From NCBI GenBank assembly GCA_001799995.1, contig MGUK01000084.1:1-64000 (forward strand): DNA of 64,000 nucleotides, read 5' to 3'. Position 1 is the stretch's first letter. Each line of letters begins with the position of its first letter. A program made the translations under genes and the position numbers. Shown here in pieces: positions 16,981 to 29,291 of the stretch. The notes under the pieces are model-generated. The model was not told the origin of the DNA. It saw nothing but the letters and a program-made list of their open reading frames with translations, and did not search any database. The stretch comes from Elusimicrobia bacterium GWF2_62_30. GTDB taxonomy: Bacteria; Elusimicrobiota; Elusimicrobia; Elusimicrobiales; UBA9959.

Positions 16981-18795
16981 ATGATGTTTGCGATTTACAA
17001 ATCTGGCCTGCGCTTAAAACTTACGGCGGCGTTCATCGCCTTGTCGGCGCTGACCGTAGTCTCGCTGGCCTATTTCACCATTCAGCACAGCTACCAGGCG
17101 CTGAAGACCCAGAAGCAGCAGGACGAGCTGGTCATAGCCAGGAACATCTCCGCCCAGATAGACGAGGTTCTGGTAAAAGCCAAGGCGACCATCTCCACCC
17201 TTTCACAGCACCGCGACGTCTCCAGTCCCGAGTCCTTCAGGCAAAGCGAAGCCCTGGACATAGTAACACAGGTCACGGAATTGATAGACGGCATTGCGGT
17301 GATAGATAACAACGGCAAGGTCCTTGCTATCGACCGCACGGCCCCCGATACAGAGAGTCTGCTCCCTCCTCACGGGGACATAAAAAAAATCTTCGTCCAG
17401 CCCGTGAGGGACAATCCTGCTACGCAGTTCACAAAGATATTCCGCTCCCGGTCCGGCGAGATCATGACAGCCATCGTCTCCCCGGTGGGCAGGGATGGCG
17501 CCCCGGCCCGGATAATAGTGGGGTTCATGATACTCAAGAACCACACGATGGGCGGTATAGAGAGGATACGCATAGGCAAGACGGGCTATGCCTATATAGT
17601 GGACGCTTCCGGCAACGTCATTGTGCACCCGCAGAAAGAGCGGTTGCTTGAAAACTTAAGCGATAACCCCGCCGTGAGCGAGCTGCTGACGAAGCGCGAA
17701 GGCATTATCGAGTTTACCAATAAGGACGAGGTCCGCATCCTGGCCGCTTTCGCTAAAATAGAGGAAACCGGCTGGGGCGTGGTGGTGCGCCAGCCTACCG
17801 AAGAGTCCTATGCCGCGGCGGAGCGGAATCTTTTCTTCCTCGTAATAGTGTTCGTCTGCTCGCTGCTGGCCGCGCTTGTGCTCGGCATCTACCTGGCACG
17901 CAAAATATCAGACCCGGTTACGGCGCTGGCTGTTGGTGTTAAGCAGGTGGCTGCCGGAGATCTCAACACTAAAATCAAAGTCGAGACCTCGGACGAGATA
18001 GGCCAGCTCGCGCTCGCTTTCAACGATATGACAGGGAAGCTTAAACTGCATATAGATGAAATCGACAAGGCCCATTCCGAGGTGTTGAAGACCCAGAAGC
18101 AATTGCTGCAATCTGAGAAAATGGCGGCGATAGGGCAGCTGGCCGCCGGGCTGGCCCACGAAATTTACAACCCGCTGAACGTTATCTCCGGTTTTACCGA
18201 AGTGCTGCTTAAACAAAGTGAACGCCCGGAAGCCGAAAAGAAGCACCTCGCGGAAATTTACAGGGAAACAGGGCGCTGCCAGGACCTGATAGCCGAGTTG
18301 CTGCGCTTCGCCAAACCTAAAAAGTCGGGTCGCGCCCTCTCGGACCTGGGTGTAATACTTACTGAAACGGTTTCTCTTATCCAGGCGCAGGCCAAAACAC
18401 AGAAAGTATCAGTAGTGCTTGAGATTCCCAAAGACCTGCCCGCCGTGCTGGCCGACAAAGACCAGCTAAAGCAGGTGTTCCTTAACCTTTTGCTCAACGC
18501 CTGCCAGGCCATGCCCTCCGGAGGGGAGCTAAGCGCAAAGGCTTATCAAACAGACGGCGTGGTGGCCGTCGATATTAAAGACACGGGCGTCGGCATCAAG
18601 CCGCAGGATATTCAGAATATCTTTAACCCTTTCTTCACCACTAAAGCCGAAGGCACCGGCCTGGGCCTGGCGCTCAGCTTCGCCGTTATGGAAAGCCACG
18701 GCGGAACCCTTAATGTAAAAAGCGAGGAGGGCAAAGGCGCTACGTTCACTCTGACGCTGCCGCTGCCCGATGGAACAGATGAAAAAACAGCTTGA
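16981..18795 (+). CDS. Cache-HAMP sensor histidine kinase (NtrB-type)
   Basis: A 604-residue membrane kinase. Order: TM1 (about 12-34); periplasmic double-Cache region (about 40-275, with GKTGYAYIVDASGNVIVHP); TM2 (about 283-303); HAMP (about 303-356); HisKA with LAHEIYNPLNVISGF (His about 393; Tyr replaces the usual Arg/Asn after HEI); HATPase_c with LLNACQAM, DTGVGIKP, FFTTKAEGTGLGLALS. This kinase class pairs with NtrC-type activators, and the activator gene overlaps its 3' end by 26 bases. The Cache domain implies a small extracellular ligand. Confidence 0.92.
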   Translation: MMFAIYKSGLRLKLTAAFIALSALTVVSLAYFTIQHSYQALKTQKQQDELVIARNISAQIDEVLVKAKATISTLSQHRDVSSPESFRQSEALDIVTQVTELIDGIAVIDNNGKVLAIDRTAPDTESLLPPHGDIKKIFVQPVRDNPATQFTKIFRSRSGEIMTAIVSPVGRDGAPARIIVGFMILKNHTMGGIERIRIGKTGYAYIVDASGNVIVHPQKERLLENLSDNPAVSELLTKREGIIEFTNKDEVRILAAFAKIEETGWGVVVRQPTEESYAAAERNLFFLVIVFVCSLLAALVLGIYLARKISDPVTALAVGVKQVAAGDLNTKIKVETSDEIGQLALAFNDMTGKLKLHIDEIDKAHSEVLKTQKQLLQSEKMAAIGQLAAGLAHEIYNPLNVISGFTEVLLKQSERPEAEKKHLAEIYRETGRCQDLIAELLRFAKPKKSGRALSDLGVILTETVSLIQAQAKTQKVSVVLEIPKDLPAVLADKDQLKQVFLNLLLNACQAMPSGGELSAKAYQTDGVVAVDIKDTGVGIKPQDIQNIFNPFFTTKAEGTGLGLALSFAVMESHGGTLNVKSEEGKGATFTLTLPLPDGTDEKTA

Positions 18796-20185
18796 GAAAA
18801 TACTGGTGATAGACGACGAGGCCGGGATGTGCAGCCTCATTAATACCGTGCTTTCCGACGAGGGCTACACCGTTACGGCCACGCAGAAACCGCAGGAGGG
18901 CCTGGCCCTCCTTAAAAAGGACGCCTTTGACCTTGTGATCACGGACCTGCGTATGCCTAAGATGGACGGCATGGAGATCCTTCAGGCCGTGAAGTCCGTT
19001 TCCCCGGCCATGCCCGTTATACTCATAACCGCTTACAGCACCGTGGATTCAGCCGTGCAGGCCATGAAACTCGGGGCTTCGGACTACGTGGCCAAGCCTT
19101 TTAAGAACGCCGAACTTTGTTCCGCCGTAGATAATGTGCTGGAGAAGTCCCGCCTCCGCGCCGAGAACGCGCGGCTCCGGCTTGAACTGGAGGAGAAATA
19201 TTCGTTCTCCAATATCGTCGGCAACAGCGCCAGGATGCGTGAAGTCTTCAACTATATCTCGCGGGTTGCCAAGGCGGAAGTGACGGCTATCATACAGGGG
19301 GAAAGCGGCACCGGCAAGGAACTGGTGGCCAGGGCCATACATTTTAACGGGGCGCGGCGGAGCGGGCCTTTTGTGGCCATACATTGCGGCGGCCTTTCCG
19401 AAACCATGCTGGAGAGCGAATTGTTCGGCCATGTGAAAGGCGCCTTTACCGACGCCATAAAAGACAGGAAAGGCCTGCTGGAAACGGCTGATGGCGGCAC
19501 GGTATTTTTAGACGAGGTGGGGGATATGCCGGCCCCGCTCCAGGTTAAACTCCTGAGGTTCATACAGGAGCGCGAGATACGCAGGCTGGGCAGCGACGCT
19601 ACCACTTCCGTGGACGTGCATCTTATCGCCGCCACCAATAAGGACCTGTTGGCCGAAGTAAAGGCCGGGCGTTTCCGCAATGATCTGTATTATCGCCTGG
19701 CCGTAGTCCCCATCCAAATGCCGCCGCTGCGCGAAAGGATGGAAGATGTGCCGCTGCTGGTCAGGCATTTCATCCAGAAGTATACCGGTGCCGCGCAAAA
19801 GGATGCGGTAACCGTATCTGCGGAGGCCATGCAGGCCATAATGCTCTATTCCTGGCCGGGGAATGTGCGGGAATTGGAAAATATCGTCCAGCACGCGGTC
19901 GCGTTCCTGTCCGGGGGTAAGAGCATTACTGTGGAAATGCTGCCGCAGGCGCTCTCCGGGGCCCCGGCCCGGTCCGCTTCTTGCGCCGCGGCCGACCGCA
20001 GTTTCCGCGAGGCCAAGGCCCAGGTAGTGGACTCCTTCGAAAAAGCGTATATTGCCGATCTGCTGAAAAAAACCTCTGGCAATATTACCCGGGCGTCCGA
20101 GCTCGCCGGGATGGATCGCAAAAATCTCCAGGACCTGATAAAAAAGCATGGCCTTAACGCGGGCGACTATTCTCCCACCACCTGA
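18770..20185 (+). CDS. Sigma-54-dependent NtrC-type response regulator
   Basis: A 471-residue activator. Receiver 1-120 with VIDDEAG, phospho-Asp in LVITDLRMPKMDG (about 57) and AKPF; AAA+ domain about 150-390 with Walker A GESGTGKE (about 178), GAFTDA (about 224), Walker B GGTVFLDEVGDM and arginine-finger segment FRNDLYYRL; Fis-type helix-turn-helix about 435-465 (ITRASELAGMDRKNLQDLI). The sigma-54 contact loop reads GAFTDA instead of GAFTGA. ATG at 18779 is an alternative start. It is coupled to the kinase at 16981; a sigma-54 promoter lies 110 bases after its stop. Confidence 0.94.
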   Translation: MEQMKKQLEKILVIDDEAGMCSLINTVLSDEGYTVTATQKPQEGLALLKKDAFDLVITDLRMPKMDGMEILQAVKSVSPAMPVILITAYSTVDSAVQAMKLGASDYVAKPFKNAELCSAVDNVLEKSRLRAENARLRLELEEKYSFSNIVGNSARMREVFNYISRVAKAEVTAIIQGESGTGKELVARAIHFNGARRSGPFVAIHCGGLSETMLESELFGHVKGAFTDAIKDRKGLLETADGGTVFLDEVGDMPAPLQVKLLRFIQEREIRRLGSDATTSVDVHLIAATNKDLLAEVKAGRFRNDLYYRLAVVPIQMPPLRERMEDVPLLVRHFIQKYTGAAQKDAVTVSAEAMQAIMLYSWPGNVRELENIVQHAVAFLSGGKSITVEMLPQALSGAPARSASCAAADRSFREAKAQVVDSFEKAYIADLLKKTSGNITRASELAGMDRKNLQDLIKKHGLNAGDYSPTT

Positions 20186-20250
20186 AAGGCGCGGTAAAGA
20201 TACCGCTGCGGCGCGGCAATAATACCTCTTAAAATCCTGCCCGGAAACGA

Positions 20251-20288
20251 GGCCTCCCTATGAAGCGTCAAGGGAGGCCGCCCTTTTT
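20251..20288 (+). terminator. Intrinsic terminator
   Basis: A 9-bp stem GGCCTCCCT/AGGGAGGCC (20251-20259, 20271-20279) followed by a five-T run closes the kinase/activator operon just before the sigma-54 promoter. Confidence 0.8.
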
Positions 20289-20294
20289 AATGTG

Positions 20295-20310
20295 TGGCAT
20301 AAAATTTGCA
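20295..20310 (+). promoter_or_regulatory. Sigma-54 (-24/-12) promoter
   Basis: TGGCATAAAATTTGCA fits the -24/-12 consensus TGGCAC-N5-TTGCA with only the sixth base different within the -24 box; GG (20296-20297) and GC (20308-20309) are separated by exactly 10 bases. Transcription would start near 20321, 18 bases before the ATG at 20339. It directly follows the NtrC-type activator gene. Confidence 0.75.
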
Positions 20311-20338
20311 TATACATAATATGCGGGGAACCGTGTAT

Positions 20339-22486
20339 ATGCCAATGCTCTACATATTATTTGCGGTCCTGGTAGGCCAAGGGGTCTGGCAGGGGCAAGC
20401 CAGGAGTTCGGAGGTTGCTCCGGCCTATTACTATTTCCATCGGCAGCCGGAAAAGGCTCTTTCCTTGTACCTGAAGAAGGCCGGGGCCGGCGATACCGCC
20501 GCAGCGATAGAGGGTTCCATAATCCTGCAGGAACTTGGCCGTAACCGTGAAGCGGTAACCCTGCTGGAAAAGGCCATTTCCAAAGACCCCGATAGCCTCG
20601 ATAACGAAAAACTGGCCTTGGTTATGGCCTGGGCACATTTGTATTCAGGCGCAGCGGGCAAAGCCGAGGAGTTCTTAGTTAAAACCGGTAAAATAGAGGA
20701 TCCCCGTGCCTTGTTAGGGCTTGCTCTCTCCAGGATGCAGGCCAGGAAATATGACGAGGCTGCTGCGGATTTTGAAAAACTGTCTGGCAATAGAAGCCTT
20801 TCGGCCCTGGCTTATTACTCACTCGCAACGATCGCTGAAGAGAAGGGCGACACCTCTAAAGCCGCCAGGCTGTATGAAAAAGCCCTCAAAGAGGATTCAC
20901 ACTTTGTAGAAGGCCGTCCCCGCATGGGGCGCATCTTCGAGAGCCAGGGCCGCATAGATGATGCCTGGAAGCAGTATTCCAAGACGGCCATGATGGACCC
21001 TTCGCAGAAACTGGCCGCCGAAAAGGCCAAGAGCCTGTTGGCGATGTTGACTAAAAAGCCGGAGGAGATCCTTGCGGTCAAAAAGATAAAGAACTTTTCC
21101 GGTGTTAAACCCATTTCCGAGCGCGAAGCCAGCCCGGAGATCCGGATAGGCATCGGGACCACCGCCGGCGGTTCACCGGTTTACAAAGATAAGATAGTTT
21201 TCCGCGTGTCCGGGCCTTTTTCAGTATCTGATGCGAAGACCGGGAAAGAAGCGGTTTCCGGTAATACTAACGAGGTCTGGACCATTGCCGTTTGCGGCGG
21301 AACCGATAACCTCTGCCCGCCTCCCCCAAACCCCAACACAGAGGGAGTCGGTTCCGCCCCGGATATAAAGTCTGCTGCCGCCAGCGCCCCGGTAAAAGGG
21401 GCGAAACTTATTGGTCCCGGGGGGAACGCCGTTTATGTTGCGCCGGGCGCTTTACTGATAAGGGCGAAAGACCGCGGCAACGCGACCATTATACTTGAGA
21501 CGGTCGCTTACGCGCCGGGCATGGCCTGGAGCGGGGTGGCCGACAAAGAACTGCGCGGCGACCTTGAACTGGTTGTCGCTCCGGACCAGAAAGGGCTGTT
21601 CGCCATAAACAGGCTGCCTTTGGAGGAATATCTTTACGGCGTTATCGCCGCCGAGATGCCGGTGCACTGGCCCGCCGAGGCGCTTAAAGCGCAGGCCGTG
21701 ATAGTCAGGACCTACGCCCTGTATTTAATGAGGAATCTGCATCCGCACTCCGCTCACGGCTACAACCTCTGCGACGAGCAGCATTGCCAGGTTTACGCCG
21801 GGGTCGCGGTAGAAAGCGCCAAGGCACGTTCGGCGGCGGACCTTACCCGCGGTAAAGTGTTGAACTATGCCGGGAAAGCCATTCACGCTGTCTTCTCCTC
21901 CAACTGCGGCGGCCATACGCAGAGCGGTTCCGGGGCAGGCTGGACCGACCTGCCGTATTGGGGGATGGTCCATGACGGTGAATCTACTGCGCCGATAGAA
22001 AGCCCGTCCGGGTTAGCTTCATTTTTGAGGACCTCGCCACAGGTCTTTTGCCGTACCTCAAAGTATACCTGGGCTCCGGAGTTCAGGTGGACGCGGCTTA
22101 TTTCTGCCGAAGACCTTATCGGGCGCTTAAACCGCAGAGAGAAGATAGGGAAACTGAAGAAGATCCTGATATCCCGCAGTGAGTCCGGCCGGGTAGCTTC
22201 TTTGAGGTTCATAGGCACCGCCGGGTCTGTAGCGTTAAACAAAGAGCATGAGATACGGAGGCTGCTCGGTTTGGCCCCGTTACGCAGCACATTGTTCGGA
22301 GCCGATGTGTTTTACGATAAAGATTTTGTAAAAGGCCTGCTTGTTTATGGCGCGGGCTGGGGGCACGGCGTAGGCTTATGCCAGTCCGGGGCCGCCGGGC
22401 GGGCCGAGGCCGGGCAGACTTACGACAAAATACTGCCTGCTTACTATCCGGGCACCGTTATCACGGATTTGATGACTTTGAAGTAA
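20339..22486 (+). CDS. SpoIID/LytB-domain protein with N-terminal TPR repeats
   Basis: About 715 residues, exported. The N-terminal third (about 30-250) has TPR-like repeats (AYYSLATIAEEKGDTSKAARLYEKAL and similar). The C-terminal half carries the SpoIID/LytB domain: LPLEEYLYGVIAAEMPVHW, ALKAQAVIVRTYAL, VFSSNCGGHTQSGSG and GWGHGVGLCQSGAAG, the last holding the conserved Gly-His-Gly-x-Gly and Gln. SpoIID proteins cleave denuded peptidoglycan glycan strands; the LytB group is broader. ATG at 20339 is chosen because it gives the signal peptide and sits 8 bases after GGGGAA and 18 after the predicted sigma-54 start site; ATG 20321 and TTG 20306 are in frame. First gene of the envelope operon. Confidence 0.88.
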   Translation: MPMLYILFAVLVGQGVWQGQARSSEVAPAYYYFHRQPEKALSLYLKKAGAGDTAAAIEGSIILQELGRNREAVTLLEKAISKDPDSLDNEKLALVMAWAHLYSGAAGKAEEFLVKTGKIEDPRALLGLALSRMQARKYDEAAADFEKLSGNRSLSALAYYSLATIAEEKGDTSKAARLYEKALKEDSHFVEGRPRMGRIFESQGRIDDAWKQYSKTAMMDPSQKLAAEKAKSLLAMLTKKPEEILAVKKIKNFSGVKPISEREASPEIRIGIGTTAGGSPVYKDKIVFRVSGPFSVSDAKTGKEAVSGNTNEVWTIAVCGGTDNLCPPPPNPNTEGVGSAPDIKSAAASAPVKGAKLIGPGGNAVYVAPGALLIRAKDRGNATIILETVAYAPGMAWSGVADKELRGDLELVVAPDQKGLFAINRLPLEEYLYGVIAAEMPVHWPAEALKAQAVIVRTYALYLMRNLHPHSAHGYNLCDEQHCQVYAGVAVESAKARSAADLTRGKVLNYAGKAIHAVFSSNCGGHTQSGSGAGWTDLPYWGMVHDGESTAPIESPSGLASFLRTSPQVFCRTSKYTWAPEFRWTRLISAEDLIGRLNRREKIGKLKKILISRSESGRVASLRFIGTAGSVALNKEHEIRRLLGLAPLRSTLFGADVFYDKDFVKGLLVYGAGWGHGVGLCQSGAAGRAEAGQTYDKILPAYYPGTVITDLMTLK

Positions 22487-22511
22487 CTTAGCTGTTCGAA
22501 AGGAGAAAACA

Positions 22512-22877
22512 ATGAAACGAAACATGATGAATGTCGGCATGGCTGTTATGGCTCTTGCCTTGTCCTTTGGCTTGTCCGGCTGCGGCCGCTCAAAGCAGAA
22601 CGCGTCCCTTGCTCTGGAAGAAGCCAGGTTGAATATTTCTGCGGCCAGGGGCTCGGGCGCGCAGACCTATGCCGCCGAACCGTTGAAAGAAGCCGTGGCC
22701 GCTCTCAATAAGGCCGACAAAGCCTTTGAGGCGATGAAATACGATATGGCAAAGACGGCAGCGGAGAGCGCCGTTCAGTTGGCTAAAGCCGCGCAGGAAG
22801 TGGCAGAAAAAAAAGCCGCTGACAAAAAACTGAAACCTGCTAAAAAAGCGGTGAAATCTGCTAAAAGAATAAGGTAA
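22512..22877 (+). CDS. DUF4398-type lipoprotein (1 of 3)
   Basis: A 121-residue lipoprotein: signal sequence with lipobox LSGC (Cys about 24), then a helical domain of the DUF4398 type with two antiparallel helices (SLALEEARLNISAARGSGA, EAVAALNKADKAFEAMKYDMAKTAAESA) and a Lys-rich tail. Preceded by AAAGGAG. DUF4398 proteins commonly occur beside OmpA-like proteins and may associate with peptidoglycan; this one is followed by a paralogue and then an OmpA-domain lipoprotein. Confidence 0.75.
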   Translation: MKRNMMNVGMAVMALALSFGLSGCGRSKQNASLALEEARLNISAARGSGAQTYAAEPLKEAVAALNKADKAFEAMKYDMAKTAAESAVQLAKAAQEVAEKKAADKKLKPAKKAVKSAKRIR

Positions 22878-22894
22878 CACCAAGGTGAGAAAAA

Positions 22895-23257
22895 ATGAAA
22901 AAACCAACAGGGTATTTTGCAGTGGCATTTTGTGTTTTATTTACCGGCTGCGCCGGGCTGAACGCGCGGAAAGAAGCTAAAACCGCGTCCCAGAACGTCG
23001 CGGCGGCCGAAGCTTCGGTTAAGGCAGCAAAGCAGGGCGGGGCGACCGCCTGCGCGGCCATGGAGTTGAAACTGGCGGAATCCGACCTAAAGCTGGCAAA
23101 GAGCAACCTCGGAAAGAAGGCGTATAGCCTTGCTTTAACCCTCGCCAAGTCGGCCGATTCCAACGCTGCAGCGGCCGCAAAGAAGTGTGAAGCGGCCAAG
23201 CGCAAAGAGGCGGAAACCAGGAATAAAACGAAAAAAAATAGGAATACTTATGACTAA
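22895..23257 (+). CDS. DUF4398-type lipoprotein (2 of 3)
   Basis: A 120-residue lipoprotein with lipobox FTGC (Cys about 19) and the same two-helix pattern as the gene before it ([38 protein letters not shown]). Two extra Cys (TACAAM, KKCEAAK) could form a disulfide. Its Lys/Arg-rich tail overlaps the start of the OmpA-type gene by 8 bases. Confidence 0.72.
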
Positions 23258-23795
23258 AGAAAACAAACAAAAAATAGTTCACCTCCTGTTCCTGCTGGTG
23301 GTGTCTGTTTTCGCCGTAGCCTGCGGCAAAAAGAACGTCAAACAGCCCGGCACTTCTCAGAATGTCGCGGAATTTAACGCCGAGCCGGAGCTACAGGTAG
23401 AAGAAAACGATATTAAGGACCAGGAAGCTTCTTTAAGAAGCAAGGATTATGTACAGTCCGAGGATCTCAAAACCGTGTATTTCGATTTTGATAGGTCCGG
23501 GCTTATCGAAGACACCCGCAATGCCTTGCAGGCTAATGCGGTATTCATAAACAAATTGTCGTCCCCGGAAGTGCAGATAGCCGGGCATTGCGACACGCGC
23601 GGCACGACCCAATATAACCTTGCTTTAGGCCAGGCCCGTGCTAACGCGGTGCGGGATTATTACCGCAGGCTGGGGATAAAAGCCAACTCGATGGCTACTA
23701 TAAGTTACGGAAAGGAAAAACCGGCGTGTGAGGATTCAACTGACGATTGCTGGGCAAAACAACGGCGTGTTGAAACGCTTATAAGGGTCAAATAG
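23250..23795 (+). CDS. Pal-like OmpA-domain lipoprotein
   Basis: A 181-residue outer-membrane lipoprotein with signal sequence and Cys at about residue 25 (FAVACGKK). The C-terminal 105 residues form an OmpA/Pal peptidoglycan-binding domain: [33 protein letters not shown] (the Asp and Arg that contact diaminopimelate), SYGKEKPAC and RRVETLIRV. It anchors the outer membrane to the wall. No TolB or TolA lies nearby, so it may be a specialised Pal paralogue. Start chosen at the ATG directly before the signal sequence; the frame is open upstream. Confidence 0.88.
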
Positions 23796-23824
23796 TTTCC
23801 CTGTAAATTAAACGGTGTTACACA

Positions 23825-23932
23825 ATGGAATCATACTGGCTTTATGTGCTGCTGGCCTTGTCGCTGATAACGTTCTTGTTCGTGTTTTTCTGGTTCACAC
23901 AGGTTACTGAAGATGCTGTGAAAAAGAAATAG
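23825..23932 (+). CDS. 35-residue single-pass membrane protein
   Basis: ATG at 23825 opens a short frame (MESYWLYVLLALSLITFLF then VFFWFTQVTEDAVKKK) ending TAG at 23932. One hydrophobic helix of about 20 residues followed by an acidic then Lys-rich tail is typical of small membrane proteins that attach to larger complexes. No strong ribosome-binding site was seen (GTTACACA upstream). It sits between the Pal-like and FecR-like genes of the envelope operon. Confidence 0.55.
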   Translation: MESYWLYVLLALSLITFLFVFFWFTQVTEDAVKKK

Positions 23933-23967
23933 AACCGCTCCGTAAGAACGGGGCGCGGAATTTGTAA

Positions 23968-24501
23968 ATGAAATATTTAAAAACAGCAACTTTGGCGCTG
24001 GTATTGTTTACAGGTAATCTTCTTGCTCAATCCGCAGGTACGGGAAAGTTTGTGCTTCCTACTCCGGGGTTAAAGATCACCGAAACAACCGGCACCGTGA
24101 ACCTCATGAAGTACGGCCTTGTTGTAATGACCCTCAGGCCCGGAGATGTCATCCCTGCGCTGGTGGACACTAGTATTAGTTTTACCGTTGTGGATGGAAT
24201 AATAGTGCTTGAAGCGGGCAGGGAGAAGATATCGGCCGCAGGCGGTGCGACTTTTACCGTTACTGCTGAAAAGGGCAGGGAGGTTGTTATTAGTGTAGCT
24301 GAAGGCGCCGCTATCACTATTAAAGGTTCGGCGGAGAACGTTATGCTTGCCACAGACAGTGAAATTAAAATAACTTACAACCGCAAAAAGACTATCATCT
24401 TAATAAAAAAGGGCAGCGCCGTTACAACCCTGTCCTTCGGGGCAGAGCAAAAGATAGTAAATGCAGGCGGAACCTTTGTTATACCTGCACCTGCGAAGTA
24501 A
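23968..24501 (+). CDS. Secreted FecR-like beta protein
   Basis: A 177-residue exported protein (signal peptide to about residue 20, NLLAQSA). The mature part is almost entirely beta strand with repeated short G-x-(V/I)-x-(V/I) turns (FTVTAEKGREVVISVAEG, AITIKGSAENVMLATDSEI), similar to FecR-type periplasmic domains. The resemblance is in pattern only. It lies inside the envelope operon, 53 bases before the sigma-54 paralogue. Confidence 0.55.
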   Translation: MKYLKTATLALVLFTGNLLAQSAGTGKFVLPTPGLKITETTGTVNLMKYGLVVMTLRPGDVIPALVDTSISFTVVDGIIVLEAGREKISAAGGATFTVTAEKGREVVISVAEGAAITIKGSAENVMLATDSEIKITYNRKKTIILIKKGSAVTTLSFGAEQKIVNAGGTFVIPAPAK

Positions 24502-24554
24502 GCGGTTCAACGCCCGGCTGTAATTAGTAACCGGCGTATATTAACGGAGTGTTT

Positions 24555-25592
24555 ATGAGCGGATTGCGTCCTAAGATAAAAAATAAAGTGGCGCCAAAGC
24601 CAAAAGCCGGCCTTGCTTTTCGCCTGAAAGCGGTACAGCTCTTCTCTTTAAGCGAGCCGGCCGTGGCTCGGCTTATCTTCAGGCTGGAGCTTGACCCGCT
24701 GTTCGCAAAACTCCGCCCGTTCATCCGCCGGGAGCCGTCCAAAGGCGCAAGATTCTTTTTGCCGCTAAAAGACGATGCCCGGGCGGGCCGGCTGTCACCG
24801 GAGATCTCCTGGTCCGCCTACAACCGCGAGATAGCGTTGATAAAGAAAATCGGCCAGGCCGGTTTCGAGAAATATTTCCTTTACGGTGATCTCGCCTTCA
24901 CCCCGGAGGAAGTCTCAGGCTTTACAGGCCTCAGCCCTGTTGAAGTGAAGCAGGTTAAATGCTTTGTGTTTGCGGTCTCGATGCAGCAGCATGGCCTCTG
25001 GAACATATCCAACAGTACCGCGCAAGTCCGGGATTACTCCTGTATAGCTAATGTCGTATTTAGTAAAGGCATGCCGGTATTATCCTGGCGGCTTCCCCAG
25101 TTGGCACGCGGCCGGTATATAGTGGACTTTGCCGCTTTAACTTTATTCCGCAAGTCTGAGTTGACCAAAGAAGAGTCGGATAGACTGACGGAACTGCTCG
25201 GGACTATAGAGTTTTTAAACGCACGGCAATTAATCATAAAGCGCCTCGCGGAGCTTGTAGTCGTCACCCAGCGCAAGTTCTTCGCCGCCGGCGAGAGATC
25301 TTCCCTTGTTCCTTTTACCGCCTCGGACGCGGCCAGGAAGTTGAATGTCTATCCAAGCACCATCTCCCGGGCTTTCGCTGGGCGCAGCCTGCTCACACCT
25401 CAGGGCTCCGAACTTGCGCTGGAATTCTTCCTGCCCAACCAACGGGCTATAGCGGTCGGCGCGATAGCCGGAATACTTGAAGCCCATCCTGAAATTACAG
25501 ATAAAGCCCTGGCAGAAGAATTGAGCGAAAAACACAACATCCGGCTTTCCCGGCGTTCCGTAAACGCTTGCCGTAGTATTGCCTCGCGTTAG
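24555..25592 (+). CDS. Divergent sigma-54 (RpoN-like) factor
   Basis: A 345-residue protein that aligns with RpoN over its whole length but is diverged. Near the N-terminus, AVQLFSLSEPAVARLIF followed by RLELDPLFAKL matches the region-I pattern (leucine helices ending E-x-(N/D)-P-L) but lacks its glutamines. A central core-binding-like region follows. Region III has the helix-turn-helix YPSTISRAFAGRSLLTPQG, matching the RpoN sequence S-T-(I/V)-S-R ... TP-x-G. The C-terminus reads LSRRSVNACRSIASR, a degenerate RpoN box (canonical ARRTVAKYR; both Arg, the Val and the final Arg kept). RpoN is usually 450-500 residues, so the acidic linker is reduced. ATG at 24555 has GGAG 6-7 bases upstream; a GTG at 24549 is possible. 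Confidence 0.75.
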   Translation: MSGLRPKIKNKVAPKPKAGLAFRLKAVQLFSLSEPAVARLIFRLELDPLFAKLRPFIRREPSKGARFFLPLKDDARAGRLSPEISWSAYNREIALIKKIGQAGFEKYFLYGDLAFTPEEVSGFTGLSPVEVKQVKCFVFAVSMQQHGLWNISNSTAQVRDYSCIANVVFSKGMPVLSWRLPQLARGRYIVDFAALTLFRKSELTKEESDRLTELLGTIEFLNARQLIIKRLAELVVVTQRKFFAAGERSSLVPFTASDAARKLNVYPSTISRAFAGRSLLTPQGSELALEFFLPNQRAIAVGAIAGILEAHPEITDKALAEELSEKHNIRLSRRSVNACRSIASR

Positions 25593-25665
25593 GCAGGCGG
25601 CCGGAAAACAGGCAGATCGGCGGCATAGATTTATTATTTAATCCGGTAATTCCGAAGGAATCATT

Positions 25666-26763
25666 ATGTCCAAGCTGATAATCCGCCTTACAAATACCCC
25701 TTTGAAAACTATTGCTCTGGCTTCTTTTCTGCTTTTATCTGTGGGCTATCTCGACTACGCCACCGGCTATGAAGTGGCTCTCTCTTTCTTTTACATTTTA
25801 CCCGTATTAATTGTGACCTGGCGCATAAACCTGCGCGCCGGGCTTATGTTTTCCGTTCTTAGCGCCGTCTTGTGGGGTTTGAATGATTCCTGGTTTATCT
25901 TCCATCCGTACTCCCATCCAGGCATCCCTTACTGGAATGCCCTGGTGCGCTTAATGTTCTTTGTCACTTTCTCGATCCTTAGCGATTACATTAAGTCTTT
26001 TCTTCAGCGGGAACAAGTCCATTCAAATTTGAAATCGTCTATGATCCATACGGTAAGTCATGAGTTTAATAACTCCCTTACCGTACTGTCCTCGGGGCTT
26101 TTCCTGTTGAGAGAAACCGAACCGGAACCGGGCGACGCTGTGCGGTTAAAGGTTTTGTCCGCTATGGAGGCGACCAGGCTTCAGATGTCGCGTTATATAA
26201 AGAATATACTTAACGAGGCCAGGCTGGATGCCGGCAAGTTCAAGCTGGAGAAGACTTCATTTGCTTTAAGGGAGCTTGTTCAGGAATCCGTTGCCCCCAT
26301 GCAGGTGATACTCAACACAAGGGGGTTAGCGCTGGAGATTAAAATGCCGGAGGTCCCGGTCCTTATCAGTGCGGACCGGGACGCTATGGCGCTTATTGTC
26401 AACAACCTCCTGGCAAACGCTATAAAATATACGCCTGCGGCCGGACGGATCATAGTCACCATTTCACCCCGCGGAGAACCTGTCGAAAAGATGGTTTTTT
26501 CCGTTGAAGATACCGGGATCGGGATTTCGCTTGCGGATATCGACAAATTAACTGCTGATTTTTATCGGACTGAAGCCGGCAAAGGCGCGGCTGAGGGCTT
26601 CGGATTGGGTTTAAAAATAACAAGCGAACTGCTGAATCTGCATGGCAGCCGTCTTGAAATATTCAGCGAAAAAGGGAAAGGTTCACGCTTCTTTTTTGAA
26701 TTGCCTGCACTGCCGCCGCATTACGGAGAAACAACAGAAAAGCCGGATAACATCGGAGAATAA
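25666..26763 (+). CDS. Membrane sensor histidine kinase
   Basis: A 365-residue kinase. Residues about 10-110 hold four hydrophobic segments (IALASFLLLSVGYLDY, ALSFFYILPVLIVTW, AGLMFSVLSAVLWGL, LVRLMFFVTFSILSDY), a MASE-like sensor without an extracellular domain. HisKA carries SHEFNNSLTVLSSG (His about 128), then HATPase_c with NNLLANAIKY, EDTGIGIS, GFGLGLKIT. No receiver domain is attached and no receiver gene is adjacent; the output partner is unknown. It follows the sigma-54 paralogue by 73 bases. Confidence 0.88.
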   Translation: MSKLIIRLTNTPLKTIALASFLLLSVGYLDYATGYEVALSFFYILPVLIVTWRINLRAGLMFSVLSAVLWGLNDSWFIFHPYSHPGIPYWNALVRLMFFVTFSILSDYIKSFLQREQVHSNLKSSMIHTVSHEFNNSLTVLSSGLFLLRETEPEPGDAVRLKVLSAMEATRLQMSRYIKNILNEARLDAGKFKLEKTSFALRELVQESVAPMQVILNTRGLALEIKMPEVPVLISADRDAMALIVNNLLANAIKYTPAAGRIIVTISPRGEPVEKMVFSVEDTGIGISLADIDKLTADFYRTEAGKGAAEGFGLGLKITSELLNLHGSRLEIFSEKGKGSRFFFELPALPPHYGETTEKPDNIGE

Positions 26764-26778
26764 TAAGGAACCAATCCA

Positions 26779-27303
26779 ATGAAAAAGCAACTGATACTAT
26801 GTTTAACAGCGTGTGCGTTCCTGACTGCCTGCGCCACCACCCGGGCCACAAGGGAAGCTATGGCCCGCGCCCAGCAGGATCTGCAAAGCGCGGAAAGCTC
26901 TTTCACTGCCGCAAGATTTGCCGGCGCGGAAACTTATTCAATAACTAATCTGCGCACCTCGCTGGTAAATCTTCAGTCGGCAAGGACCGAGTTCGCTGGC
27001 AAAAAGTATACCAAGGCGACTCTTTCCGCCCAGAGTTCCCTGTACTTCTCCAAAAACGCCATAAGCGAAACGGAAGTCGCAAAGCGGCATGAAGCGGAAG
27101 CAAAGCGCATACAGGAAGAAGAAGCCCGGCGCGAAGCGGCTATAAAAGAGCAGGAAAAAGCCGATGCCAAAGCGAAGGCGGCTAAAAAGGCCAAACCGGC
27201 CGTCAAAGCCAAAGTTACGCAGCCTGCCGCTAAAACAACCGCGGCGCCGCCGGCCCCGGCAGCACAAAAGAAAGAAGAACCCAAAAAGAAATCCTGGTGG
27301 TAA
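26779..27303 (+). CDS. DUF4398-type lipoprotein (3 of 3) with Ala/Lys-rich tail
   Basis: A 174-residue lipoprotein with lipobox LTAC (Cys about 19). The DUF4398-like two-helix core (RAQQDLQSAESSFTAARFAG, LVNLQSARTEFAGKKYTKA) is followed by a long coiled coil and an Ala/Lys/Pro tail ending KKKSWW. The tail resembles TolA-type periplasm-spanning helices. Third member of the family in this operon. Confidence 0.7.
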   Translation: MKKQLILCLTACAFLTACATTRATREAMARAQQDLQSAESSFTAARFAGAETYSITNLRTSLVNLQSARTEFAGKKYTKATLSAQSSLYFSKNAISETEVAKRHEAEAKRIQEEEARREAAIKEQEKADAKAKAAKKAKPAVKAKVTQPAAKTTAAPPAPAAQKKEEPKKKSWW

Positions 27304-27314
27304 GGAGTCAAACA

Positions 27315-27566
27315 ATGAATCGTAAAAATATGCCGGGAATAGTTGTAGCGGCGATTATGCTGTTAGGCACGGTTGCGGCCTACTCTAAATCCGGCAAATC
27401 CGCGAAAAATACGCCGAAACCGGAAAAGACCTGCGCACAGAAGTGCAGCGATCGTTATAGCAAAGCTATGGAGGCGTGCAAGCTGAAAAAGGGCAAGCCG
27501 GCGGACAAATGCAAAAAGGCCGCGCAGACCAAAAAAGATAAATGCAGCGCCGCCTGTAAAAAGTAA
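27315..27566 (+). CDS. Small secreted Cys/Lys-rich protein
   Basis: An 83-residue exported protein: signal peptide (NMPGIVVAAIMLLGTVAAYS), then a Lys-rich domain with six Cys arranged as C-x3-C, C, C, C, C-x3-C (ending KKDKCSAACKK), likely a disulfide-bonded helical hairpin. A good AAGGAG site precedes ATG 27315. No family recognised; it follows the third DUF4398 gene by 11 bases. Confidence 0.65.
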   Translation: MNRKNMPGIVVAAIMLLGTVAAYSKSGKSAKNTPKPEKTCAQKCSDRYSKAMEACKLKKGKPADKCKKAAQTKKDKCSAACKK

Positions 27567-27625
27567 CGCCGCCTTATCTCAGCCGCGGGGCGCTCCGGCT
27601 ATGCGGCAGGGCGTTCTCCTTTGTG

Positions 27626-28201
27626 ATGGATATTATGAAACATCTTTCTCTTCATTTGCTGGGCGGCGTAAGCATGTTTTTGCTGGCGTTGCTTCTCGGA
27701 CTGGCGGCCATTCACTTCTGCGGCTCTTCTGTTTTGTATCTGTCAAAATCGGTGCTTCCGGGTATCAGCGGGCTGGGTTTGTTTTCTCTTGTGGCTCTGA
27801 ACGATTTCATGGTTACGCCTGTTTCCCCGGATATATTGATTTTCCTTATTTCCCAGAAATCACCTGGCAGCTATATGCTGATCACCGCCCTGGGCACAGC
27901 CTCTGTCTTGGGAGGCGCCTTGGCCTGGTTATGCGGCCGGTCTTTGGAAAATAAGTTTAAAGCCGCCAGGGTGGAGAGGTTTGTTGCGAAAAACCATGCC
28001 CTTATCAATAAATACGGCGTCTGGATCGTAGCCCTCGGTGCGTTAACCCCGGTCCCGTATTCCTTAACCTGCTGGGCGGCCGGTGCGCTTAAGATGGATT
28101 TCCCGAAACTCTTTCTAATGATCCTGCTGCGGATCCCGCGGTTTATAATTTACTTCCATTTCTTCGCAATATCCGCCGGGATTATACAGGCTAAGATTTA
28201 A
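27626..28201 (+). CDS. VTT (DedA/SNARE-associated) domain membrane protein
   Basis: About 191 residues with five or six hydrophobic segments. The VTT/DedA pattern is visible: an N-terminal re-entrant part (VSPDILIFLISQKSPGSYML), an ALGTASVLGGALAWLCGR helix and the conserved G-x-L-x-P-x-P segment WIVALGALTPVPYSLTCWAAG, with an Arg in the final part (LRIPRFIIYF). The family scrambles or transports lipid-linked intermediates. Start is uncertain among GTG 27623, ATG 27626 and ATG 27635. Confidence 0.75.
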   Translation: MDIMKHLSLHLLGGVSMFLLALLLGLAAIHFCGSSVLYLSKSVLPGISGLGLFSLVALNDFMVTPVSPDILIFLISQKSPGSYMLITALGTASVLGGALAWLCGRSLENKFKAARVERFVAKNHALINKYGVWIVALGALTPVPYSLTCWAAGALKMDFPKLFLMILLRIPRFIIYFHFFAISAGIIQAKI

Positions 28202-28219: not shown

Positions 28220-29041
28220 ATGTTTCGCATTTTTCTCGCAATAATAATCCTGTGGGCTGGCGCCGCTACCACTTTGTACGCGCAGCCGGAGTCTGAAACG
28301 GAGCAGCAGCAGGTTGCCCCGTCCACCTCCGTTGTCCAGGAGCCTGATTATGCCGAGATAATTGATGAATCTGTTCTTGCCTTTGCCCCGCGGCCGGAGG
28401 ACACGGACCTGGTGGCGCCGGCAGGGATGCCCTTATTCGGGAAATGGATGGTTACCCCGCTTTTTAAGCGTGCCGACTGGCTTGGCGTCCGTTATAAGAA
28501 TAAAACGCTTTGTGAGCCGGTGAATATAATCATCGCCGACGCTTACGCCAGGTCCCCTGAAGAAGCCCATGCGCGGTTTTGTGAGGCGGCTAAAAAAGCG
28601 GGGTTTCCCAGCAGATGGGGACACTCCACCGGGTACCTGGCATTTATTGCCGGCGCGTTCCGGACACGGTTAGAGGGAAAGAAACATCACGCCTTTTCCG
28701 ATGCCTCCTGGAATAAAGCCAATAACCACGGGCGCATCTTCGGCCCCGTATTCTATAACGGCAAATATTGGTTTGCGGCCGCTTTCAGCCGGCAGAACGT
28801 GAATCTTCTGCGCAAAGTCAGGCACCGCTACGTTTCTTTCAACGAAGCGCGCGATAAATTCGCCTGGGCCATGAATGACACAACACCTTACAAAGTTTCC
28901 AGCTTTATCCCCATGGAAAACGCGCTAATCGGCTCAGAGAAAGAATCTACCGGCGACCATGACGGACTTGCTGGCAGCGCGCATACTGGAAGAGTCCGGC
29001 TACACCGTCCTGCAGGCCGCGCTCCCCGAAAATGCGCTTGA
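28220..29041 (+). CDS. Exported protein with LssY-C-like domain, scrambled C-terminus
   Basis: A 273-residue exported protein (signal peptide to about residue 22). Residues about 75-205 resemble the C-terminal domain found after LssY membrane proteins (EPVNIIIAD, EEAHARFCEAAKKAGFPSRWG, LEGKKHHAFSDASWNKANNHGRIFG), a weak assignment. From about residue 240 the sequence becomes basic and Gly/Arg-rich; there it is reading, out of frame, a receiver-domain fragment that begins near 28955. The natural end has therefore probably been lost in a deletion or fusion. Last plus-strand gene before the minus receiver operons. Confidence 0.55.
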   Translation: MFRIFLAIIILWAGAATTLYAQPESETEQQQVAPSTSVVQEPDYAEIIDESVLAFAPRPEDTDLVAPAGMPLFGKWMVTPLFKRADWLGVRYKNKTLCEPVNIIIADAYARSPEEAHARFCEAAKKAGFPSRWGHSTGYLAFIAGAFRTRLEGKKHHAFSDASWNKANNHGRIFGPVFYNGKYWFAAAFSRQNVNLLRKVRHRYVSFNEARDKFAWAMNDTTPYKVSSFIPMENALIGSEKESTGDHDGLAGSAHTGRVRLHRPAGRAPRKCA

Positions 29042-29291
29042 TCTGTGCCGGGACGGCGCGGAGATATCGCTTATGCTGACCGACGTGATAATGCCGCAGA
29101 TGAGTGGATGGGAGCTGGCAGAGAAAGTTCGAGAGCTGCGGCCGGGTCTGCGCATCATCTTCACCTCCGGCTACACCGATGACACACTGGTTGGCCACAA
29201 GCCGCCGGCGGAAGGCGCCATACTGCTTGAAAAGCCGGTCACCGCCGAGAACCTGGTAATAGCCGTTCGCGCTGCACTGGACCGGGTCTGA
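28959..29291 (+). pseudogene. N-terminally truncated receiver-domain remnant
   Basis: This frame encodes the last four-fifths of a response-regulator receiver of the type fused to hybrid kinases: LLAARILEESGYTVLQA, phospho-Asp in LMLTDVIMPQMSG, FTSGYTDD and LLEKPV. The first strand and acidic pair (the usual VDDE) are missing, and there is no ribosome-binding site before ATG 28959. It overlaps the preceding gene in another frame. It resembles the C-terminal receiver of the hybrid kinase at 34660, so it may be the stub of a lost paralogue. Confidence 0.7.

What the first reader, a model, noticed from the sequence alone, without database searches (positions are those of the whole stretch)
20295..28201. 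Sigma-54 envelope operon that encodes its own divergent sigma-54
Seen: an NtrC-type activator gene ends at 20185, a GG-N10-GC promoter lies at 20295-20310, and a same-strand run of eleven genes follows (SpoIID/LytB, three DUF4398 lipoproteins, Pal-like OmpA, 35-residue membrane protein, FecR-like protein, RpoN-like factor, membrane kinase, Cys-rich protein, VTT protein). Known: NtrC-type activators act only with sigma-54. Inference: this is a dedicated envelope regulon in which the sigma-54 paralogue and second kinase form a feedback or hand-over step. A sigma-54 paralogue inside a sigma-54 target operon of wall-binding lipoproteins is not something I know as described.
Basis: partly seen in the sequence, partly recalled or inferred. 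Interest (0 to 1): 0.82.

Follow-up and report, generated by a model that had tools for sequence, protein, structure and literature searches.

The report
Self-encoded compact sigma-54 envelope module
In this uncultured Elusimicrobiota bacterium a sensor kinase, a sigma-54 activator, its DNA binding sites and a sigma-54 promoter sit directly in front of an envelope lipoprotein operon that also encodes a short, unusual sigma-54, and across the phylum such short sigma-54s are usually encoded beside their own activator, while the standard sigma-54 is almost absent.

Summary
The -24/-12 site at 20295-20310 is real and conserved, and the operon behind it encodes a sigma-54-type protein. The reading changes in one respect: this is not an accessory copy beside a housekeeping RpoN. 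Own genome (84% complete): one sigma-54 DNA-binding-domain protein and one strong bEBP hit, both in this locus. Among 341 Elusimicrobiota genomes, 144 have sigma-54s, mostly about 350-400 aa; only one match is of canonical strength. Sigma-54 and bEBP presence coincide (140 both, 4 and 6 alone, 191 neither). The genus has 51 sigma-54s and 52 bEBPs, usually adjacent and co-diverging (r = 0.92). The window locus recurs in three other genomes as HK-bEBP-DUF4398-DUF4398-Pal-sigma54; all four keep two tandem GGTAAWWWWACC palindromes exactly 22 bp apart, 69-80 bp upstream of a GG-N10-GC promoter. The other genes of the operon are local additions. Best reading: a self-contained two-component/sigma-54 module for outer-membrane-peptidoglycan lipoproteins, with the sigma factor in its own target operon. 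No core-binding domain could be recognised in the compact sigma-54, and no activity was tested. Six further sigma-54 promoters carry a different enhancer, so a second pair is probably missing from the assembly.

The parts
16981..18795 (+). HK1: membrane sensor kinase with periplasmic dCache, HAMP, HisKA, HATPase
   Evidence: Pfam; 71/56/56% identical in the three syntenic loci
18770..20185 (+). NtrC-type bEBP (REC-AAA+-Fis HTH), loop motif GAFTDA
   Evidence: Pfam; only strong PF00158 hit in the genome, (two others at about 1e-8); GAFTDA
20193..20204 (+). Putative bEBP site 1, GGTAAAGATACC
   Evidence: conserved in 4 loci
20215..20226 (+). Putative bEBP site 2, GGCAATAATACC, 22 bp from site 1
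   Evidence: same 22-bp spacing in all 4 loci; 0 of 20,000 shuffles
20251..20279 (+). Intrinsic terminator hairpin followed by GCCCTTTTT
   Evidence: -20.9 kcal/mol, z -3.6
20295..20310 (+). -24/-12 sigma-54 promoter TGGCATAAAATTTGCA; predicted start about 20321
   Evidence: same position in 4 loci
20339..22486 (+). TPR + SpoIID/LytB protein (insertion specific to this locus)
   Evidence: absent from the NtrC-DUF4398 gap of syntenic loci
22512..22877 (+). DUF4398 lipoprotein a (conserved core)
22895..23257 (+). DUF4398 lipoprotein b (conserved core)
23250..23795 (+). Pal-like OmpA lipoprotein (conserved core)
23825..23932 (+). 35-aa membrane protein
23968..24501 (+).
24555..25592 (+). Compact sigma-54 (345 aa): region I-like N-terminus, unassigned middle, sigma-54 DBD, RpoN box SRRSVNACR
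25666..26763 (+). HK2: second membrane histidine kinase (local addition)
26779..27303 (+). Third DUF4398-like lipoprotein
27315..27566 (+). Cys-rich secreted protein
27623..28201 (+). VTT-domain membrane protein
28220..29041 (+). Unassigned secreted protein; possible continuation of the operon
28959..29291 (+). Stand-alone receiver domain; possible end of the operon

Best explanation
The locus is a self-contained signal-to-promoter module. HK1 senses a periplasmic signal and phosphorylates the adjacent bEBP (inferred from domains and the 26-bp gene overlap). The bEBP binds two tandem palindromes just behind its own gene (conserved footprint; binding inferred) and acts through its GAFTDA loop on RNA polymerase carrying the compact sigma-54 at the -24/-12 site (inferred, since neither the genome nor its close relatives hold another recognisable kind of sigma-54). 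The operon makes Pal and DUF4398 lipoproteins, probably outer-membrane-peptidoglycan tethers, plus the sigma-54 itself, so activation is self-reinforcing; a terminator between bEBP and promoter limits read-through. It is one of several lineages of compact sigma-54/bEBP pairs that carry sigma-54 transcription in most Elusimicrobiota that have it.
For: One sigma-54 DBD protein and one strong bEBP hit in the genome; no CBD match in own genome and 36 relatives. Presence coincides in 341 genomes (Fisher p 2.3e-82; 247 sigma-54 to 289 bEBP; genus 51 to 52). Pairs usually adjacent; distances correlate, r 0.92, 0 of 2000 permutations. Conserved HK-bEBP-DUF4398-DUF4398-Pal-sigma54 order in G150, G171, G170, with conserved palindromes and promoter. 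Profile hits solved RpoN chains, E 2.9e-26; hhalign 99.3%; the 30 best Foldseek PDB hits are all sigma-54. The RpoN box and a region-I-like LExDPLF motif are conserved.
Against: The middle region (about residues 82-206) is not recognisable as a core-binding domain: no Pfam CBD, weak hhalign, and its fragment model finds no sigma-54. The window's RpoN box reads CR where most relatives read YR. The bEBP has GAFTDA, not GAFTGA. Positive feedback needs basal sigma-54 from an unidentified source. The assembly is 84% complete, and six other sigma-54 promoters with another enhancer imply a further pair not seen. A few of the family's sigma-54s lie with no bEBP on the fetched stretch, mostly at contig ends. 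No expression data.
Confidence: 0.74

Rival explanations
1. The short protein is not a working sigma factor but a DNA-binding relative that competes at -24/-12 sites, a feedback brake, while a canonical RpoN missing from the assembly does the transcription.
For: No recognisable core-binding domain; 84% completeness; degenerate RpoN box.
Against: Only one canonical-strength RpoN in 341 genomes of the phylum, yet 146 genomes keep bEBPs, 140 of them with a sigma-54 DBD protein; region-I-like motif kept; full-length model retrieves sigma-54 chains.
Confidence: 0.12
2. The operon is read mainly from sigma-70 promoters or by read-through from HK1-bEBP; the sigma-54 site is a minor input, and the sigma-54 mainly serves the other six promoters of the genome.
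For: Six further TGGCAY-N5-TTGCW promoters exist upstream of membrane or secreted-protein genes.
Against: Those six carry a different enhancer, TTTTCANNTGAAAA tandems, matching another bEBP lineage; a strong terminator precedes the promoter here; the GGTAAWWWWACC tandem plus promoter is conserved in four loci; no excess of sigma-70-like sites in the region.
Confidence: 0.1
3. One reading: a sigma-54 paralogue and second kinase forming a hand-over step downstream of a housekeeping RpoN.
For: HK2 lies directly behind the sigma-54 gene, and a Pal-sigma54-HK2-like fragment exists in G165 (L295).
Against: No housekeeping RpoN found; HK2 absent from the three best syntenic loci.
Confidence: 0.04

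Closest known systems
Cereibacter (Rhodobacter) sphaeroides RpoN1-RpoN4 with cognate bEBPs (PMC11999139)
   Same: Several sigma-54s in one genome (4 rpoN, 5 bEBPs); each one studied works with one bEBP and one gene set; promoter position -11 contributes to specificity for RpoN1/RpoN2.
   Different: That paper calls it exceptional for one organism. Here the pattern spans a phylum, pairs are usually encoded together, proteins are compact, and the canonical form is nearly absent.
Canonical RpoN (sigma-54) family
   Same: DNA-binding domain, RpoN box, region-I-like N-terminus, -24/-12 promoters, bEBP partner.
   Different: About 345 aa instead of 477 (E. coli); no recognisable core-binding domain; NCBI rpoN_sigma 52 bits against a 277 cut-off.
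Chlamydia sigma-54 with CtcB/CtcC (PMC7482065)
   Same: Small sigma-54 circuit driven by a two-component system and tied to membrane genes.
   Different: CtcC lacks a DNA-binding domain; nothing in the passages read describes rpoN inside a target operon of CtcC.
Sigma-54 as controller of the bacterial exterior (PMC3162934)
   Same: Targets are envelope genes.
   Different: That survey lists Elusimicrobium minutum as lacking sigma-54 and activators; this study finds both in 140 of 341 Elusimicrobiota genomes.
rpoN autoregulation through sigma-54 promoters (PMC12316311)
   Same: Sigma-54 gene transcribed from a sigma-54 promoter in several classes.
   Different: There it is an inferred feature of canonical rpoN; here the gene lies inside a conserved target operon directly behind its presumed bEBP.

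Membership tests
Sigma-54 (RpoN) family | Sigma-54 DNA-binding domain (PF04552) over cut-off | tested here: met
   50.6 bits against 22.8
Sigma-54 (RpoN) family | RpoN box (ARRTVAKYR type) | tested here: met
   SRRSVNACR in the window, SRRSV[NA]xYR in relatives
Sigma-54 (RpoN) family | Core-binding domain (PF04963) | tested here: inconclusive
   No Pfam hit; full-length fold search returns sigma-54, middle fragment alone does not
Sigma-54 (RpoN) family | Region I that contacts the activator | tested here: inconclusive
   Co-linear hhalign match, 58% probability, shared LExxPL motif; canonical glutamines lacking
Sigma-54 (RpoN) family | NCBIfam rpoN_sigma equivalog cut-off | tested here: not met
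   52.2 bits against 277, so it is filed as a divergent variant, not as an RpoN equivalog
Sigma-54 (RpoN) family | Binds core RNA polymerase and starts bEBP-dependent transcription | not testable with these tools
   needs biochemistry
NtrC-type bEBP | REC + AAA+ (PF00158) + HTH | tested here: met
NtrC-type bEBP | GAFTGA loop | tested here: inconclusive
   GAFTDA, with F and T kept; same in all window-type loci
-24/-12 promoter | GG-N10-GC with TGGCAY/TTGC | tested here: met

The most novel reading that the evidence does not exclude
In Elusimicrobiota the usual plan of one housekeeping sigma-54 serving many activators is replaced by plug-in modules: each bEBP travels with its own compact sigma-54, promoter and enhancer, and the pairs are functionally orthogonal, giving parallel private sigma-54 circuits per cell built on a reduced sigma-54 that binds RNA polymerase in a different or minimal way.
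Probability: 0.45. Interest if true: 0.87.

Novelty: new variant of a known kind. Interest (0 to 1): 0.76.

Why it matters
Sigma-54 biology rests on one RpoN shared by many activators. A phylum in which compact sigma-54s are usually encoded with one activator each, and in which the standard form is nearly absent, would give natural candidate sets of orthogonal sigma-54, bEBP and promoter, show which parts of sigma-54 are dispensable, and make the question of what sets bEBP-sigma-54 specificity directly testable (GAFTDA against GAFTGA loops, distinct enhancers and promoters). NCBI's RpoN model scores far below cut-off on them, so they are likely to be missed in annotation.

Tried and rejected
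A single-sequence scan of GTDB contigs found nothing; the alignment scan worked and named the phylum. The idea that the whole 11-gene operon is conserved was rejected: only DUF4398-DUF4398-Pal-sigma54 behind HK1-bEBP is. SpoIID orthologues in the sister family lack the DUF4398/Pal neighbours, so that gene was probably recruited. The idea that the bEBP here drives all seven sigma-54 promoters of the genome was rejected on the different enhancer. My first promoter scan of the syntenic loci used a spacing one base too long and was redone. The middle region could not be shown to be a CBD; the full-length fold match (rmsd about 20 A) is not taken as proof. Comparison with viral structures gave no significant match. 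Literature searches for sigma-54 in Elusimicrobiota found no description, within open-access PMC only.
Full report
WHAT IS THERE. Between 16981 and 29291 the plus strand carries a sensor kinase (HK1; dCache, HAMP, HisKA, HATPase), an overlapping NtrC-type activator (REC, AAA+, Fis HTH), a 153-bp gap, and a run of genes separated by at most 73 bp. The gap holds, in order, two palindromes GGTAAAGATACC (20193) and GGCAATAATACC (20215), a terminator hairpin at 20251-20279 (-20.9 kcal/mol, z -3.6, followed by GCCCTTTTT), and TGGCATAAAATTTGCA at 20295-20310. The first gene most likely starts at ATG 20339, not at the TTG listed at 20306, which lies inside the promoter.

THE SIGMA-54. The 345-aa product matches the sigma-54 DNA-binding domain (50.6 bits), and a profile of it and its relatives finds solved RpoN chains, best E 2.9e-26. 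Profile-profile comparison with seven canonical RpoNs gives 99.3% over the C-terminal part. An AlphaFold model (pLDDT 84) has sigma-54 chains as its 30 best PDB matches, although overall rmsd is poor. The N-terminus aligns co-linearly with region I and shares the LExxPL motif (58%). The stretch between is not recognisable as a core-binding domain by any method tried. It scores 52 bits on NCBI's rpoN model, whose cut-off is 277.

NOT A PARALOGUE OF A HOUSEKEEPING RPON. The genome has one PF04552 match and one strong PF00158 match, both here; two further PF00158 matches at about 1e-8 are far weaker. No PF04963 match was found in it or in 36 relatives. The phylum is Elusimicrobiota, by record titles of the relatives. 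Of 341 Elusimicrobiota genomes, 144 have a PF04552 match; a single one (G326, 171 bits, 465-aa frame) is of canonical strength, the next 93 bits. Presence of sigma-54 and of bEBPs coincides: 140 both, 4 sigma-54 only, 6 bEBP only, 191 neither, Fisher p 2.3e-82 (species are related, so the p-value overstates independence). Totals are 247 to 289 over the phylum and 51 to 52 over 29 genomes of the genus (counts transcribed by hand, G010's split match counted once). Not every genome has equal numbers: 79 of 140 are equal and 128 differ by at most one.

PAIRS. In the genus and family, sigma-54 genes usually lie 1.1-2.8 kb from a bEBP (centre to centre), in two main layouts: sigma54-HK-bEBP on one strand (type I), and bEBP and sigma-54 divergent (type II). 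Exceptions are mostly at contig ends. Distances among sigma-54s and among their bEBPs correlate at r 0.92 over 62 pairs (0 of 2000 permutations reach it), also within types I and II. This shows co-inheritance, not exclusive function.

THE WINDOW TYPE. The closest sigma-54s (44, 39, 36% identity) are in G150, G171 and G170, the last two from another family. All three have HK1-bEBP-DUF4398-DUF4398-Pal-sigma54 (bEBP 71, 58, 56%). Behind each bEBP stand two GGTAAWWWWACC-like palindromes exactly 22 bp apart (0-2 mismatches), then a GG-N10-GC promoter, TGGCTCGTTTTTTGCA or TGGCGGAAAAATTGCA, with 69-80 bp from the start of the second palindrome to the promoter. No shuffle of 20,000 of the window's gap gave such a tandem, and among 1.13 Mb of fetched sequence the tandem at one mismatch or fewer was found only at three of these loci, the fourth having a two-mismatch site. 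All four bEBPs have GAFTDA, while types I and II have GAFTGA.

A SECOND REGULON. The genome's six other strict promoters are upstream of genes mostly for membrane or secreted proteins (read by eye), with the extended consensus TTGCWCTGTA. Each has a tandem TTTTCANNTGAAAA-like palindrome upstream (read by eye; the divergent pair shares one). The same tandem, 20 bp apart, precedes most type II promoters of the genus. A type II pair is therefore probably in the missing 16% of this assembly, or lost; this weakens any claim that the cell has only one sigma-54, but it shows that the two regulons are separable by enhancer.

MECHANISM. Shown: gene order, domains, conserved palindromes and promoter, terminator prediction, absence of canonical RpoN in the data, co-inheritance. 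Inferred: HK1 phosphorylates the bEBP; the bEBP binds the palindromes; the compact sigma-54 is the partner; Pal and DUF4398 proteins tether outer membrane and wall; positive feedback through the sigma-54 gene. Open: source of basal sigma-54, signal, core binding, role of HK2.

COMPARISON. Cereibacter sphaeroides has four RpoNs and five bEBPs, each RpoN studied having its own bEBP (PMC11999139), and is called exceptional there. Autoregulation of rpoN is known (PMC12316311). Elusimicrobium minutum was listed as lacking sigma-54 (PMC3162934), in line with the sister family here. No open-access paper on sigma-54 in Elusimicrobiota was found. Verdict: a new variant of a known kind, of high interest, with sigma activity still to be shown.

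Noticed in passing
G000 contigs C15:28432, C49:30575, C82:11832, C91:6880 and 7100, C97:16416 (L221-L225): Six other sigma-54 promoters with TTTTCANNTGAAAA-like tandem enhancers, mostly upstream of membrane or secreted proteins; no matching bEBP/sigma-54 pair in the assembly.
   Followed up: partly
L067:9776, L066:8035, L079:8341 and other type II loci: The -24/-12 site in front of type II sigma-54 genes overlaps a sigma-70-like promoter (TTGCTC, about 17 bp, TATAAT), a possible switch between basal and autoregulated transcription.
   Followed up: no
L065:2682-2861 and 18 similar genes: A 59-aa protein with a HisKA H-box-like sequence (HisKA E 0.047, below cut-off) next to type II bEBPs.
   Followed up: no
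L306 (G326:C115:3069-3539): The only sigma-54 match of canonical strength among 341 Elusimicrobiota genomes, in a genome without a strong bEBP match; contamination not excluded.
   Followed up: no
L226:15219-19161: A further sigma54-HK-bEBP locus with GAFTDA, followed by a multihaem cytochrome-like protein.
   Followed up: no
window 28220-29291: Two more same-strand genes behind the VTT gene: an unassigned secreted protein and a stand-alone receiver domain.
   Followed up: no
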